A stretch of 64,000 bases of DNA from assembly GCF_013394595.1 (NCBI RefSeq), contig NZ_CP053348.1:3250001-3314000 (forward strand), written 5' to 3'. The stretch's first letter is position 1, and every line of letters begins with the position of its first letter. The notes beneath the pieces are model-generated. The model worked only from the letters and a program-made list of their open reading frames with translations, ran no database searches and was not told the origin of the DNA. This DNA is from Winogradskyella forsetii. Its GTDB lineage: Bacteria; Bacteroidota; Bacteroidia; Flavobacteriales; Flavobacteriaceae. Shown here piece by piece: positions 49,348-54,393 of the stretch. The position numbers and the translations under genes are program-made.

Positions 49348-49367
49348 GCCTGAATCTTAATTCAGGC
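49348..49367 (-). terminator. Terminator of the metal cluster, overlapping the last CDS
   Basis: GCCTGAAT pairs perfectly with ATTCAGGC (4-nt loop), followed on the minus strand by eight T residues. Its upstream arm lies inside the last codons of the HMA gene. Confidence 0.85.
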
Positions 49368-49746
49368 ATATAAATTTATTTTCCGTCTCCTTTTTCTTTT
49401 TTGTGATCGTCTGAACGTCTTCATCACGATACTTGCAACAAGGATGCACGGAGTTATATTGTTCTTCTGTGGCTTTGATCTCTTTAGTATCATGACCAAC
49501 TGCTGCAATACTTTCAGAAATAGATTTTACATCCGTTTTACGTTCATCAAAAATGAGTTTTAACTCGTGCGTATCCACATTCCAAACCGCAGATTTTACG
49601 CCTTTGGTTCTAATGGCTGCTTTTTCTATGCGCTCTTTGCACATACCGCAAACACCATCAACTTCGATACTTGCTTTTGCATTTTTGTTTTGTGCAAATG
49701 TTACTGTAGTCAGTAATACGGTTAATATTATAATTATACGTTTCAT
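49357..49746 (-). CDS. Secreted heavy-metal-associated (HMA) domain protein
   Basis: 129 residues: signal peptide (about 1-18), an HMA fold with the metal site GVCGMCKERIEKAA (the canonical GMTCxxC is changed to GVCGMC), and a second Cys pair near the end (HPCCKYRD) after a conserved His. Probably a periplasmic MerP-like copper or zinc shuttle. It is the last gene of a four-gene cluster with a TonB receptor and an HMA-MauE protein. The final residues run into the terminator stem, and a different frame gives a shorter acidic/basic ending, so the C-terminus may be frameshifted. Confidence 0.8.
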   Translation of the reverse strand: MKRIIIILTVLLTTVTFAQNKNAKASIEVDGVCGMCKERIEKAAIRTKGVKSAVWNVDTHELKLIFDERKTDVKSISESIAAVGHDTKEIKATEEQYNSVHPCCKYRDEDVQTITKKKKETENKFICLN

Positions 49747-49768
49747 ATTTTTTTGTTTTTTATTAAGA

Positions 49769-49814
49769 CACTTCGCCTGCCTGCCTGTTCGTAAGACCAG
49801 CGCTCAGTGTTACA
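49769..49814 (-). repeat. Dispersed ~46-bp repeat, copy B (inverted)
   Basis: On the minus strand this reads TGTAACACTGAGCGC ... ACGAACAGGCAGGCAG ... CGAAGTG and matches copy A at 46201-46249 in order and spacing. It lies between the TonB receptor and the HMA gene. Confidence 0.65.
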
Positions 49815-49892
49815 ATTTGGTTAATTTTATTAATTATTTTTTCAATTATAAAGAATGCTTCGTCATTCTTCCTCGCAATACCGTTCCAATTA

Positions 49893-52148
49893 TTATTTTA
49901 GTTTATATCGTAATCCTGCGTAATACATACTTCCAAAAATTGGGCCGTAGACAAAATTACTATCAAAATTTGAACCAAACGGGTTCTCTGCACTTACAAT
50001 TGGATTGCCTTGTCTTACGTTCGTCACGTTTTCTCCACCTAAATATACTTCAAATTTAGGAGAAAATACTTTCGTGACTTGTAAATTTAATGTCCCAACA
50101 GTTGGCGAATAGTCGTCTAACTGAAATTCTACAGGACTTAAATCCGTACTTGGAAAACGCTGCGAATCCAACCAATTGTAGGTCGCATCAAATTTCCATT
50201 GCGCACCGTTTTCTTTTTGATGCGTCTCATAAGAGGCATTGGCAAACAACCGATGTTTTGGAATTAAGGGCTTTTCTAATTTGCCAGAATTATAATCCGT
50301 TTTGATATCGTAATATTTATAAGCAGTTCTAATATCAAAATGCTCAAAGACATTATAATTAAATTCAAATTGAAAACTATACGCATAACTATCACCTTCT
50401 AAATTATAAAAATTGATTTCATAAGGATTTTCCCAATCGACAACCACTTGATTTTGAAAATCGGTTCTATAAAAATCAAAAGTGATGTCTGCTTTTCTCT
50501 CGAATAAATTGAAGCCTTGCAAATAACTGATGCCATAATTCCAAGCAATTTCAGGATCTAAACCATAAATCTTCCCACCTGAATTCAAAATATTGATTTG
50601 TCTAGAACTCGCAAACATATTTTGATTTTCTGCAAAAATATTGGCACTTCGTTTCCCGCGACCGACAGAAAACCGCCACGCAGATTTCCCCCAAGGCGTA
50701 TAACGTACATGCAAACGTGGCGTTACAAAAAATCCAAGTCTGTTATGCTGATCGACGCGCACACCAGCTGTCATGGTCAATTTATCCAAATTATCGTAAG
50801 CATATTCAAAAAATCCTCCGACCGAATTTTCGGTACGTTCGTAAGTATCTGTATTTACCAACTCGTCATAATGATCGTAGGTAAAACTCAATCCTGTTTT
50901 TACTTTGTGTCGAGAATCTGAAATAATTGTGTTATACACCAAATTAGAATAAAAACTATTATGCTGAATATCATACAGGTTTAAACCAAAATAAGAATCT
51001 TGTTTATGATGACTAAAAGCGGTCTGAAATCCTAAACTTTGGTAGGGGATTTCAGGGTTGACATATCCGAGTTTCGTAGTCACTTCAAAACGTTCTGTAT
51101 TGATTTCGCTTCCCCACGTTTCGACTCCGCTCAACGACCCAGGATTTCTTGGGTCGAAATTGTCTGGGTTAAACGCCACTTGTCCTGCTTGTTTTTCGTC
51201 GTTGAGATATCTTAAATTAATAAAACTAACCACCCCTTTTTCTGGATTGGTATATTGCCAACGGTTCATAACGTTGATTTGATTGTATAATGGCATATCT
51301 AAAAATCCGTCGTCATTAACATCATGTTTTTGCTGATGCGTGTTGCCATGCAAGTACAAACCTGTACTCCATTTATCGGAAACTTTAGTGTTTAGATGTG
51401 TGTTCAGTTCTAAACGTTCACTAGATGCGCCATATAGATTTACGAATAAGCGATTGTCCGTGGAAGGTTTTACCAATTCTGCATTGATTTGGCCAGCAAT
51501 ACTCTCAAAACCATTGACCACACTTCCTGTGCCTTTAGTAATTTGAATACTTTCTACCCAAGTTCCAGGAATAAAACTGAGTCCATAAGCTTGAGATGCA
51601 CCACGAATTGCCGGAATATTTTCAGTCGTAATCAATATATAAGGCGAGTTTAAACCCAACATCTTTATCTGACGTGTTCCCGAAACCGCATCTGCGAAAT
51701 TAACATCGATAGACGGGTTAGTTTCAAAACTTTCGGAAAGGTTACAACAAGCCGCTTTCAACAATTCGTCACTACTTACAAAAAGTGTGTTGGTCGCTTT
51801 TAAATACGATTTTGAAGTGGCTTGATTTCTTGAATTTACGACCACAGCATCTAATTCATCACTAGCTTGCAGCACATGTTTTATATACGTGTTTTCGTTA
51901 ACTGTAATCGTATCCGTTTTAAAACCCACATAACTAATTACCAATTTATTATATGAGAATTTATAGGGCAGCGAAAATGTGCCATCATCTGCTGTGATGG
52001 CTCCAACTGAAGATCCTGACCAATACACATTTGCCCCAGGCAAAGGCATTTCTTTAGCACTACTCGCTTCTAAAACAATTCCTTCTAATTGCTCTTGCGA
52101 GAATAGGTATATAGGGCAAAGTACTATTAAGATTATGAACTTTCTCAT
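49893..52148 (-). CDS. TonB-dependent receptor, probable metal or metallophore importer
   Basis: 751 residues: signal peptide, carboxypeptidase-like beta domain (about 20-105), plug (about 115-235, with KGTGSVVNGFESIAG) and a beta barrel ending in YAGLRYKLK. The plug contains a Cys pair (KAACCNLSESFETN), as in receptors found beside HMA genes. Its ATG overlaps the stop of the HMA-MauE gene by 4 nt, so they are translationally coupled. Substrate inferred to be a metal such as copper; direct evidence is lacking. Confidence 0.85.
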   Translation of the reverse strand: MRKFIILIVLCPIYLFSQEQLEGIVLEASSAKEMPLPGANVYWSGSSVGAITADDGTFSLPYKFSYNKLVISYVGFKTDTITVNENTYIKHVLQASDELDAVVVNSRNQATSKSYLKATNTLFVSSDELLKAACCNLSESFETNPSIDVNFADAVSGTRQIKMLGLNSPYILITTENIPAIRGASQAYGLSFIPGTWVESIQITKGTGSVVNGFESIAGQINAELVKPSTDNRLFVNLYGASSERLELNTHLNTKVSDKWSTGLYLHGNTHQQKHDVNDDGFLDMPLYNQINVMNRWQYTNPEKGVVSFINLRYLNDEKQAGQVAFNPDNFDPRNPGSLSGVETWGSEINTERFEVTTKLGYVNPEIPYQSLGFQTAFSHHKQDSYFGLNLYDIQHNSFYSNLVYNTIISDSRHKVKTGLSFTYDHYDELVNTDTYERTENSVGGFFEYAYDNLDKLTMTAGVRVDQHNRLGFFVTPRLHVRYTPWGKSAWRFSVGRGKRSANIFAENQNMFASSRQINILNSGGKIYGLDPEIAWNYGISYLQGFNLFERKADITFDFYRTDFQNQVVVDWENPYEINFYNLEGDSYAYSFQFEFNYNVFEHFDIRTAYKYYDIKTDYNSGKLEKPLIPKHRLFANASYETHQKENGAQWKFDATYNWLDSQRFPSTDLSPVEFQLDDYSPTVGTLNLQVTKVFSPKFEVYLGGENVTNVRQGNPIVSAENPFGSNFDSNFVYGPIFGSMYYAGLRYKLK

Positions 52149-52879
52149 GCCGTAATGGTTTTAGACAACATTACAATAGCCATTACAAGCATAATGGAAT
52201 TTTCAATAAAAGTCGCTTTGGTCATTGGCAATTTTAAGGCTGTACCCAAACATGCACATTGAATGGTTGTTTTACTAAACAATGCTTTGGTTACTCCAAC
52301 AGTTGTAATCCCTAAAACAATAAGTGTTACAATTAGCGCAATATCAATTTGAAAGCGCATTAAAAACATTAAGCCCAAGGTTAGCTCAATAAAAGGATAG
52401 ATCCAACCATAAGCTGGAACTGCCTTTGCCAAAGGATCGTACATTCTAAAACTCTCTGGAAAGCCTTTTAAATCCAATAATTTGAAAAAACTAAAAACAA
52501 TGTAGAACAAGCCCATAAAATCGAGCATAAAGCTAGAGGAATCCCAAGGCCTATAATTCAATAATATGGAAGCTGTTATAATGTAACCAAAGATTAGAAA
52601 CAACGGAAACAGTTGTTTTAGCTCGCTCTTTTCTTCTTCTGTTTCAGTAGAAACCGAATTAAATACGTTGGTCTCCTTTTTTACTGAAAGTCTATATTTA
52701 TCGGATAATGCATTTTGAAGCGTGTCCACTTCTACATGGGTTTTCATTTTTATAGTGGCTGTTTTACTTTCTAAATCAACAGAAACATTATCAACATTTG
52801 GTAATGCCGAAAGTGATTCTTCAACCGAAGCTTTACAATTGTTACAGGTCATACCTGAAACGTTATAGGTGTGTGTCAT
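52145..52879 (-). CDS. HMA domain fused to MauE/DoxX-like membrane domain
   Basis: 244 residues. The N-terminal HMA domain (about 1-70) has the metal site GMTCNNC. A linker leads to a four-helix membrane domain (about 90-240) with FKLLDLKGFPESFRMYDP and IQCACLGT, features of MauE/DoxX-type redox membrane proteins. It could bind a metal on the cytosolic or periplasmic side and couple it to membrane thiol chemistry (inference). Second gene of the cluster, before the TonB receptor. Confidence 0.82.
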   Translation of the reverse strand: MTHTYNVSGMTCNNCKASVEESLSALPNVDNVSVDLESKTATIKMKTHVEVDTLQNALSDKYRLSVKKETNVFNSVSTETEEEKSELKQLFPLFLIFGYIITASILLNYRPWDSSSFMLDFMGLFYIVFSFFKLLDLKGFPESFRMYDPLAKAVPAYGWIYPFIELTLGLMFLMRFQIDIALIVTLIVLGITTVGVTKALFSKTTIQCACLGTALKLPMTKATFIENSIMLVMAIVMLSKTITA

Positions 52880-52955
52880 TTTAAATTTAAATTTGAAATA
52901 TTAATAATTGGCATCAAAAATTGTGATGCTTAAAATCATAAAACTTCAAATAAAA

Positions 52956-53369
52956 TCAAATAAGGTAAGTTTCATCCAAAACCTGAAGGTCCTTGATGAG
53001 TATTGGCGGTGAATAATCCTTGTGCGGAACAACCGAGTTCGGTAAGTCCTCAAAAAGATTAATATAGGTATAACTGTAAGCAAATAGTAGGTGTTGCTGA
53101 ATAACATCCAAGTCTTCAAACGAATTGACGGTCATGTCAGACAAGCCTTCAATAATATCAATTTCATCTTTACAACAGCTCTTTTTCAGAAGGCTTACAT
53201 TGTCTATTTCAGAGATATCATCGGAACACTTTTCACTTTTAGAAAATATAGCTACATCGATCAATGTATCGCCACAAAAATGTTTCTCAATCGTTAATGA
53301 CAACGTTGAAAACAATACCAAAAAAGATAGTGCTATGGAAAAGACTTTATGTGCGTTTGAAACTTTCAC
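52956..53369 (-). CDS. HYC_CC_PP family secreted protein
   Basis: 137 residues beginning at GTG 53369, since no ATG precedes the signal peptide (about 1-25). The diagnostic features are HFCGD after the signal peptide, KSCCKDE in the middle and PP near the C-terminus (YSPPILI), so it belongs to the small HYC_CC_PP family of Bacteroidota. Members usually lie beside HMA and TonB genes, as here, suggesting periplasmic metal binding. First gene of the metal cluster. Confidence 0.78.
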   Translation of the reverse strand: MKVSNAHKVFSIALSFLVLFSTLSLTIEKHFCGDTLIDVAIFSKSEKCSDDISEIDNVSLLKKSCCKDEIDIIEGLSDMTVNSFEDLDVIQQHLLFAYSYTYINLFEDLPNSVVPHKDYSPPILIKDLQVLDETYLI

Positions 53370-53383
53370 GGTGCAAAGTTACG

Positions 53384-53391
53384 AAATTCTA
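53384..53391 (-). promoter_or_regulatory. -7 element of the metal cluster
   Basis: TAACTTTG on the minus strand is a perfect TAnnTTTG, only 14 nt from the GTG start, so the leader would be about 10 nt. No TTG at -33 was found in the expected interval. No Fur- or CsoR-type palindrome was recognised. Confidence 0.55.
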
Positions 53392-53420
53392 ACTTTACTG
53401 ATTATTGAATTTTGAAACTA

Positions 53421-53849
53421 TTAACGATTCAGTTTATGGTAATAAAACGCTGGCAAAAGCAATATTAATCCAATAGGCTGGATTAAAAACCGTCTCACAT
53501 TAAAAAACATATAATAATCTTCCTGCCTTGGATTGATTACAAAATATAAAAATGGAATCATCAGTAGAATATAAGCAGTAACATAGATAATGGTAGAAAA
53601 TTTAATAATATTCTTGTCGTTAAAAATAAGATATAATATGCCTAAGGAAATCGTTGAATTCAAAACAAACCTTAAGGTAGTATTGAGAACTAGCTTTGCT
53701 ATTTCCCGTCTCGGACTATCCATGTATAAATAATCATTTTCGAAAAACTTAAGGTAGGGATCGTAGAACAGTTCATCCTCAAAACCTCTAATGGCTACCA
53801 AAAGTAGAAACAAAAAAACGACGCATATGTATCTGGTTAGTTTAGTCAT
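53421..53849 (-). CDS. Exosortase F system-associated membrane protein
   Basis: 142 residues with an N-terminal helix and three further transmembrane segments (about 55-75, 85-105, 120-138). The stretch RGFEDELFYDPYLKFF is characteristic of the XrtF partner of Flavobacteria. Its ATG lies inside the end of the xrtF gene (8-nt overlap), so the two are coupled. Its job with XrtF is not known in detail. Confidence 0.82.
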   Translation of the reverse strand: MTKLTRYICVVFLFLLLVAIRGFEDELFYDPYLKFFENDYLYMDSPRREIAKLVLNTTLRFVLNSTISLGILYLIFNDKNIIKFSTIIYVTAYILLMIPFLYFVINPRQEDYYMFFNVRRFLIQPIGLILLLPAFYYHKLNR

Positions 53850-54393
53850 TAGGCTTTATAGTTTTAGAAAACCGATTGACCCAGACCATCCAAAGTAAAA
53901 AAACCACACCATAAATGAGCATCGGGAAAATCACGGTATGCATAATTTCCTGTCGCCAAGGATAATGGTATAATCCAACAGAAAGAATAACAATTCTAAT
54001 CAGATTAAAAGCATAAATAAGGATGCTGCCAGCAAAACAGTAAAAAAGTGTTGACTTCCATTTGCCAGCAAATGCAACGATAAATGAGACAAATAAAATG
54101 ATAATACTAATAGCATTGCAGCCTTCAATAACACGAGCTACATATTTTCCGTTTATCACGATTTTCATGGAAGGTTCATTGGGATGCGGCAACACCTTAG
54201 TGTCATAACCAAAACCATTTAATAACGCCTTGGTTTGCTCGGCCACTAAATTGGTTAAGTAATCTGGATAATATTCAGAACCATCAGAACTATTCAAATA
54301 GAAATTGTAAGCAATGGTCAACGCAGCATATACAGCCAGAAATGTAACTATAAAACGAATTACGGATTTGTATTTTACTAATAGTGCTCTCAA
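53842..54393 (-). CDS. xrtF: Exosortase family protein XrtF
   Basis: 183 residues with about five transmembrane helices. The three catalytic residues of exosortases are visible: Cys in IEGCNAIS, Arg in FNLIRIVILS and His in MHTVIFPM. It should cut and anchor C-terminally tagged surface proteins. A stop codon upstream leaves TTG 54393 as the likely start. No target with a clear sorting tag was seen in this window. Confidence 0.87.
   Translation of the reverse strand: MRALLVKYKSVIRFIVTFLAVYAALTIAYNFYLNSSDGSEYYPDYLTNLVAEQTKALLNGFGYDTKVLPHPNEPSMKIVINGKYVARVIEGCNAISIIILFVSFIVAFAGKWKSTLFYCFAGSILIYAFNLIRIVILSVGLYHYPWRQEIMHTVIFPMLIYGVVFLLWMVWVNRFSKTIKPND

What the first reader, a model, noticed from the sequence alone, without database searches (positions are those of the whole stretch)
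49357..53369. Four-gene HMA/TonB/MauE/HYC_CC_PP metal module
HYC_CC_PP protein, HMA-MauE fusion, TonB receptor with a Cys pair in its plug, and a periplasmic HMA protein are on one strand with a 4-nt start/stop overlap between the second and third genes. All carry Cys pairs suited to copper or similar metals, and each stage (outer membrane, periplasm, inner membrane) is covered. How these parts work together is, to my knowledge, not worked out.
Basis: partly seen in the sequence, partly recalled or inferred. Interest (0 to 1): 0.55.

Follow-up and report, generated by a model that had tools for sequence, protein, structure and literature searches.

The report
Bacteroidota copper-uptake gene cluster, outer-membrane receptor
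Four neighbouring genes in a marine-type bacterium look like a set of parts that bring copper through the cell envelope, and the same helper parts turn up beside known copper-export pumps, which makes copper the likely cargo and gives a testable candidate for a copper entry route in this large group of bacteria.

Summary
Four minus-strand genes: HYC_CC_PP, HMA-MauE fusion, TonB-dependent receptor (TBDR), HMA protein, with an ATGA overlap between genes 2 and 3. It is a conserved unit: 62 of 80 HMA-MauE loci carry all four in this order (many close relatives). In 148 genomes of the phylum the core is wider: an orthologous TBDR in 36, each with a plug Cys-Cys pair; HYC beside it in 22, HMA in 24, fused to it in four. 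The metal is most likely Cu(I): of 58 HYC loci, 21 have this TBDR and 28 a CusA-family pump, never both; 27 of the 28 keep CusA's three copper-site methionines. HMA-MauE also lies beside a multicopper oxidase, a Met-triad CusA or P-type ATPases and carries five membrane-helix methionines (12 of 13 complete) that ordinary MauE proteins lack. Best reading: copper acquisition, TBDR plug to periplasmic HMA, with HMA-MauE handling Cu(I) at the inner membrane. Copper is well supported, import is inferred, HMA-MauE's direction is open. Ten paper searches showed no description. New variant of a known kind.

The parts
52956..53369 (-). HYC_CC_PP family protein, 137 aa, GTG start, reads as exported, H-x-C then C then CC; first gene of the unit
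   Evidence: NF047658 117 bits, cut-off 28; H30, C32, C48, C65, C66 invariant in 21 of 21 chosen relatives
52145..52879 (-). HMA-MauE fusion, 244 aa: CopZ-like HMA domain (residues 4-60) followed by five predicted membrane helices with a CACLG loop and Met at 118, 122, 230, 233, 237
   Evidence: Pfam HMA and MauE; AlphaFold2 model mean pLDDT 78; Met set; 26 of 26 invariance
49893..52148 (-). TonB-dependent receptor, 751 aa, carboxypeptidase-regulatory-like domain, plug with C134-C135 (KAACCNLSESFETNPS), beta barrel
   Evidence: Pfam CarbopepD_reg_2, Plug; Cys pair in 36 of 36 orthologue genomes, in 0 of 25 other TBDRs examined
49357..49746 (-). HMA protein, 129 aa, reads as exported, CxxC plus C-terminal CC
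   Evidence: Pfam HMA; C33, C36, C103, C104 invariant in 22 of 22 chosen relatives
53370..53420 (-). short intergenic stretch with TAACTTTG just before the HYC GTG start, like the TAnnTTTG promoter element of Bacteroidota (recalled); would give a leaderless or near-leaderless transcript
   Evidence: sequence; promoter motif recalled, not tested

Best explanation
The cluster is a copper acquisition and hand-over unit of the Bacteroidota cell envelope. Copper, free or loosely chelated, is taken through the outer membrane by the TonB-dependent receptor (inferred from its family). The Cys pair in the plug passes Cu(I) to the CxxC/CC sites of the periplasmic HMA protein (inferred from conservation and from natural HMA-TBDR fusions). 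HYC_CC_PP, a small exported Cys/His protein, buffers or relays Cu(I) in the periplasm (inferred). HMA-MauE moves or holds Cu(I) at the inner membrane through a pair of methionine-bearing helices leading to a CACLG loop and the HMA domain, probably both cytosolic (inferred; direction not known). The shown steps are gene content, conservation, linkage and the copper-type partner pumps; the transport steps are inference.
For: Copper as the metal. In 58 HYC loci drawn from 148 genomes, 21 have the Cys-Cys TBDR and 28 a CusA-family pump within 8 kb, none has both, 9 have neither. In 27 of those 28 a pump keeps the three methionines that align with M573, M623, M672 of E. coli CusA; the exception (L145) is a pump about 5 kb from a sub-threshold HYC hit. 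The 11 Cus-type loci keep them too (11 of 11). Two further pumps in these loci lack them (L071, L119), and so do the two best-scoring heavy-metal pumps of the window's own genome. Other HMA-MauE genes lie near a multicopper oxidase (L231, Pfam Cu-oxidase domains), a Met-triad CusA (L233) or P-type ATPases with His-rich starts (L232, L234). Physical partnership: an HMA domain precedes the TBDR in one ORF in 4 of 36 orthologue genomes (L138, L163, L202, L203; Pfam HMA over cut-off in L202 and L203, just under it in L138 and L163), and an HMA follows CusB in L168 (24.7 bits, cut-off 24.8). HMA-MauE specialisation: in all 12 HMA-MauE genomes of the sample plus L063, 12 of 13 proteins have all five methionines (L232 has Thr at 237), and 13 of 13 have the four cysteines; of 22 ordinary MauE proteins from the same genomes none has more than one of the five, although all 22 have the CxC. 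The TBDR plug Cys pair is in 36 of 36 orthologue genomes and in 0 of 25 other TBDRs examined.
Against: No expression, binding or phenotype data for any member came up. Import rests on what TBDRs do in general. HYC, HMA-MauE and HMA proteins are linked to export pumps or resistance-type genes at least as often as to the TBDR in the phylum sample, so they are not import-specific. HMA-MauE is dispensable: 12 of 148 genomes, while 36 have the TBDR. No HMA protein was found near the TBDR in 12 of 36 genomes, three of them with the receptor at a contig end (L116, L141, L213). Fourteen of 36 TBDR genomes have no linked HYC call. The Met triad and HMA domains would also suit Ag(I). The TBDR model was poor (pLDDT 51), so a periplasm-facing Cys pair is recalled plug anatomy, not a structure. 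The N-inside topology of HMA-MauE is weak: the two loops with more Lys/Arg are also the long ones, and in one of them acids nearly cancel them. A published survey of Bizionia argentinensis names a different, OprC-like TBDR as its copper receptor.
Confidence: 0.6

Rival explanations
1. The cluster is a copper-defence unit: the TBDR is a sink, sensor or scavenger, and HYC, HMA protein and HMA-MauE serve detoxification, as they presumably do beside CusABC.
For: HYC and HMA-MauE occur with CusA and CusB in 11 of 80 HMA-MauE loci, 7 of them with an HMA protein, and HYC with CusA in 28 of 58 HYC loci; HMA-MauE lies by resistance-type genes elsewhere.
Against: A TonB-dependent receptor is not known to export (recalled). 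HYC loci have either the TBDR or CusA, never both within 8 kb, as if the two were alternatives. The two best heavy-metal pumps of the window genome lack the Met triad, so the unit does not serve such a pump here.
Confidence: 0.2
2. The receptor takes up a copper chelate (chalkophore or environmental ligand), not ionic copper.
For: Known copper TBDRs include a methanobactin receptor, and CrtA is proposed to scavenge chelated Cu(II) (PMC12914433, passages read).
Against: No biosynthesis gene was noticed next to the unit in the window or in the neighbourhoods read; not searched genome-wide.
Confidence: 0.1
3. The cargo is another soft or transition metal (Hg, Zn, Fe, Mn).
For: HMA domains also match MerP weakly. 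The nearest other TBDR group (319-358 bits, CNVCNTGDIHING plug) lies near Nramp, iron-dependent-repressor (DtxR-type) and FeoB genes in some genomes, so the wider clade may handle divalent metals. One Cus-type island (L063) also carries a Zn/Cd-type P-ATPase.
Against: MerP, MerTP and mercuric reductase models score below cut-off; nothing in the listed neighbours reads as MerA or MerR. The linked pumps are of the methionine-triad type.
Confidence: 0.07
4. The four genes are only a conserved neighbourhood with no shared function.
For: The flanks (GAF, xrtF, xrtF-associated gene, groEL further off) are conserved as well in close relatives.
Against: HYC, TBDR and HMA stay together in other families with other flanks, HMA and TBDR are fused in four genomes, and the same small proteins re-assort with CusABC.
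Confidence: 0.03

Closest known systems
OprC/NosA copper TonB-dependent receptors (Pseudomonas)
   Same: Outer-membrane TBDR with proposed copper cargo and cysteine in the site
   Different: No CxxxM or HxM in this TBDR; no OprC-type model among the NCBIfam hits at E up to 1; OprC not among the 16 solved relatives of the profile; a plug Cys-Cys pair instead, and partner HMA/HYC genes
OprC-like TBDR proposed for copper uptake in Bizionia argentinensis (G2EC70; PMC11213822, section 12 part 1 read)
   Same: Marine flavobacterium, TBDR, copper
   Different: The paper says it carries CxxxM-HxM and lists it near CcoG and NosL; our receptor lacks that motif. The paper's table does not name a receptor next to HYC or HMA-MauE; the Bizionia genome was not searched here
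CrtA copper TonB-dependent transporters (Bordetella, Pseudomonas; PMC12914433)
   Same: TBDR family tied to copper acquisition
   Different: CrtA logo has no conserved Cys or Met and the family is mostly in beta- and gamma-Proteobacteria (passages read); here the Cys pair is invariant and the family is in the window's phylum
CusCFBA copper/silver efflux
   Same: Shares HYC, HMA protein and HMA-MauE as neighbours in relatives
   Different: Opposite expected direction; no CusA in this unit, and the two best pumps of this genome lack the Met triad
MauE / DoxX-like membrane proteins, including BT_3928 family
   Same: Pfam MauE domain and the CxC loop; the membrane part aligns with NACHO/TMEM35A (9h9e_B, Z 10.3, rmsd 3.1, 114 aligned; a middling score for a helical bundle)
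   Different: HMA fusion plus five methionines absent from the 22 ordinary MauE proteins compared
MerT/MerP and MerTP mercury transport
   Same: Membrane helices plus HMA module with Cys pairs
   Different: Below the Mer cut-offs, no neighbour that reads as MerA or MerR, membrane part matches MauE

Membership tests
HYC_CC_PP (NF047658) | Score over NCBIfam cut-off and H-x-C, CC, PP motifs | tested here: met
   117 bits against 28; motifs
MauE (PF07291) | Score over Pfam gathering cut-off | tested here: met
   64.5 bits against 27
BT_3928 family (NF045576) | Score over NCBIfam cut-off | tested here: not met
   23.8 bits against 250
HMA domain (PF00403) | Score over Pfam cut-off with CxxC | tested here: met
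   56.7 and 36.3 bits against 24.8
TonB-dependent receptor | Plug domain over Pfam cut-off and beta barrel | tested here: met
   Plug 32.2 bits against 23.9; the barrel model PF00593 matches the fused orthologues L138, L202, L203 but not the window protein itself or L163
OprC/NosA copper receptor | CxxxM-HxM copper site (as given in PMC11213822; PMC8610252 seen as listing) | tested here: not met
   No CxxxM and no HxM in the protein
CrtA copper transporter | No conserved Cys or Met, two conserved His (PMC12914433) | tested here: inconclusive
   Invariant Cys pair here differs from the CrtA logo; the sequences were not compared directly
SusC/RagA (TIGR04056) | Score over cut-off | tested here: not met
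   60.2 bits against 368
CusCBA efflux | CusA with Met triad in the unit | tested here: not met
   No RND-size gene between 48.5 and 54.4 kb; the two best own-genome pumps lack the triad
MerP / MerTP | Score over cut-off | tested here: not met
   24-32 bits against 92-180
Copper transport | Copper uptake or copper-dependent phenotype | not testable with these tools

The most novel reading that the evidence does not exclude
This is a cross-envelope copper import pathway of Bacteroidota in which the plug of a new TBDR family hands Cu(I) by a Cys pair directly to a periplasmic HMA chaperone, and HMA-MauE is a new class of inner-membrane Cu(I) channel or carrier, a methionine ladder grafted onto the MauE/DoxX fold with its own built-in chaperone, filling the gap left by the unidentified inner-membrane copper importer in these bacteria.
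Probability: 0.33. Interest if true: 0.75.

Novelty: new variant of a known kind. Interest (0 to 1): 0.56.

Why it matters
How Gram-negative bacteria take up copper across both membranes is poorly known. In Bizionia argentinensis, also a marine flavobacterium, the published survey calls plasma-membrane copper uptake uncertain and found no CusF (PMC11213822, section 12 part 1 read). The present set gives named genes, invariant residues and a clean internal contrast (same helper genes with an export pump or with a receptor) that can be tested by a few deletions. If HMA-MauE proves to move Cu(I), it adds a function to the MauE/DoxX-like fold.

Tried and rejected
TBDR structure prediction from 18 relatives gave mean pLDDT 51 with the plug unresolved; not used and not searched. 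The fold search for HMA-MauE was dominated by the HMA domain; NACHO/TMEM35A (9h9e_B) is one row for the membrane part, and no other family is excluded. An operator upstream of HYC: most Cus-type loci read share TGTTAA repeats, and many loci of both types have a TAnnTTTG box close to the start, but I could not separate regulation from promoter and from the end of the xrtF-associated gene, so no claim is made. Mercury module: rejected on family scores and lack of mer-like neighbours. Literature: ten searches; the term HYC_CC_PP was in no paper, two searches returned nothing else of use because they returned no papers, and no title or abstract start in the other listings named this gene set. Read: for PMC11213822 the outline with abstract, section 12 part 1 of 2 and passages; for PMC12914433 and PMC11960050 passages only; all others seen as listings. 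The library lacks most subscription journals. Rows that do not fit: the Psychroflexus HMA-MauE copies L040, L051, L058 have none of the partners; L073 and L080 have HYC and an HMA protein but neither TBDR nor CusA by my cut-offs; L057 and L066 lie at contig ends. Of the 58 HYC loci, L127, L148 and L149 have none of the scored partners within 8 kb. The plug control used the 25 other TBDRs for which loci were given, of 89 other matches. The AraC-type gene search covered 9 of the 12 HMA-MauE genomes.

Full report
What is there. On the minus strand the window carries HYC_CC_PP (53369-52956), an HMA-MauE fusion (52879-52145), a TonB-dependent receptor (52148-49893) and an HMA protein (49746-49357). 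Family scores confirm each name. Genes 2 and 3 share ATGA. That HYC, the receptor and the HMA protein are exported is read from their N-termini; no signal-peptide predictor was run. Upstream lie an xrtF-associated membrane protein and exosortase XrtF (TIGR04127, TIGR04128). The nearest relatives of HMA-MauE are Winogradskyella (82% identity), so the host is probably of that genus or near it; the genome itself is unnamed, 4.51 Mb, and each of HYC, full-length HMA-MauE and this receptor was found in it once.

Is it a unit. Of 80 HMA-MauE loci from named genomes, 62 have HYC, HMA-MauE, the Cys-Cys TBDR and the HMA protein on one strand in that order, 11 have HYC with CusA and CusB instead (7 of them with an HMA protein), 2 have HYC and an HMA protein only, 2 have HYC only and lie at contig ends, and 3 have none. 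These are the closest 80 of 387 confirmed, so they lean to one family. In an even sample of 148 genomes of the phylum, HYC is in 46 (43 over cut-off), the TBDR in 36 (at 500 bits or more; other hits at 374 or less) and HMA-MauE in 12. HYC and TBDR share 23 genomes; Fisher p 2.7e-6 ignores kinship. In 22 of the 23 they lie within 8 kb of each other. Of the 14 TBDR genomes without a linked HYC call, several have a Cys-rich small ORF just upstream that may be diverged HYC (L200, L204, L206, L208, L210, L212, L213, read by eye; L200 and L212 reach 17-18 bits with my HYC profile). An HMA protein, separate or fused, lies by the TBDR in 24 of 36 genomes; 12 lack it, three of these with the receptor at a contig end.

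Which metal. The helper genes point to Cu(I). In the 58 HYC loci, 21 have the TBDR and 28 a CusA-type pump, none both, 4 only an HMA protein, 2 only HMA-MauE and 3 nothing that I scored. The best solved relative of such a pump (from L063) is E. coli CusA. The three copper-site methionines are kept in 27 of the 28 loci and in 11 of 11 Cus loci; two further pumps in these loci and the exception L145 lack them. The two best heavy-metal pumps of the window genome lack them as well. PMC11213822 names M573, M623 and M672 of E. coli CusA as the copper-binding methionines (passage). Against a pure copper reading, the L063 island also holds a Zn/Cd-type P-ATPase and a Fur-family regulator.

The receptor. 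The pair C134-C135 lies in the plug in the stretch KAACCNLSESFETNPS. All 36 orthologue genomes have a Cys pair there; two read SACC (L209, L212) and one (L213) is more diverged around it (window). Of 25 other TBDRs examined in five genomes none has it. By alignment it sits at the start of the plug, on the helix that in solved TBDRs is near the periplasmic side (recalled; no usable model). The N-terminal HMA domain of the four fused receptors would also be periplasmic. This suits hand-over of Cu(I) from plug to HMA. It is not OprC by motif: no CxxxM or HxM. The nearest other TBDR group, with CxxC in its plug, lies near Nramp, DtxR-type and FeoB genes in some genomes, so the wider clade seems to serve metal ions.

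HMA-MauE. The model has a CopZ-like domain and five membrane helices. Lys and Arg are commoner in the loops that would be cytosolic with an inside N-terminus, but these loops are also the longest, so the topology is only favoured. In it the HMA CxxC and the CACLG loop both face the cytosol. Methionines 118 and 122 on helix 2 and 230, 233 and 237 on helix 5 are invariant in 26 of 26 close relatives. Across all 12 HMA-MauE genomes of the sample plus L063, 12 of 13 proteins have all five and L232 has Thr at 237. Of 22 ordinary MauE proteins from the same genomes, all have the CxC and none has more than one of the five methionines; a 23rd covered only part of the domain and was left out. Outside the present unit, HMA-MauE lies near a multicopper oxidase (L231), a Met-triad CusA (L233) or P-type ATPases (L232, L234). 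An AraC-type gene with a CxxC near its start lies within 1.3 kb of HMA-MauE in 7 of the 9 HMA-MauE genomes searched for it; Pfam finds only its helix-turn-helix.

How it most likely works. Receptor takes copper in (inferred), plug Cys pair passes Cu(I) to the HMA protein (inferred), HYC buffers it (inferred), HMA-MauE carries or holds it at the inner membrane (inferred, direction open). Copper as cargo: about 0.85 in my judgement. Import across the outer membrane: about 0.7. HMA-MauE as a Cu(I) transporter: about 0.4.

Novelty. Copper TBDRs are known (OprC, MbnT, CrtA; PMC12914433 passages), and an OprC-like one is proposed for a flavobacterium (PMC11213822). I saw no description of this receptor family, of HYC_CC_PP or of HMA-MauE in ten searches of the open-licence library. 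That library lacks most subscription journals.

Noticed in passing
L229 6358-6918 +, L230 7799-8359 -, L231 6351-6911 +, L232 8871-9440 -: A short AraC-type protein with a CxxC near its start lies within 1.3 kb of HMA-MauE in 7 of 9 HMA-MauE genomes searched; Pfam sees only the helix-turn-helix. A candidate copper sensor. The window genome has two relatives elsewhere (37-38% identity), not by the cluster.
   Followed up: partly
L273-L276; L298-L305: A sister TBDR group with CNVCNTGDIHING in the plug; Nramp in L302 and L303, a DtxR-type repressor with FeoA domain in L302, FeoB in L299 and L302 by Pfam: perhaps an Mn/Fe receptor family. Other neighbourhoods were read by eye only.
   Followed up: partly
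L168 197-1834 -: An HMA stretch with C-terminal CC at the end of a CusB-type adaptor (24.7 bits, cut-off 24.8), parallel to the HMA-TBDR fusions.
   Followed up: no
L041, L063, L071, L075, L078, L079, L118, upstream of HYC: Conserved CTTCTGTTAAACAAAA...TTGTTAAA stretch before HYC in these Cus-type loci; possible operator.
   Followed up: no
window 53421-54393: xrtF and its associated gene lie just upstream of HYC here and in most related loci, about 50 bp away in the window; no functional link is known to me.
   Followed up: no
L063 11551-12033 +: A protein in the Cus island scores 51 bits with NCBIfam CopM, below its cut-off of 90.
   Followed up: no
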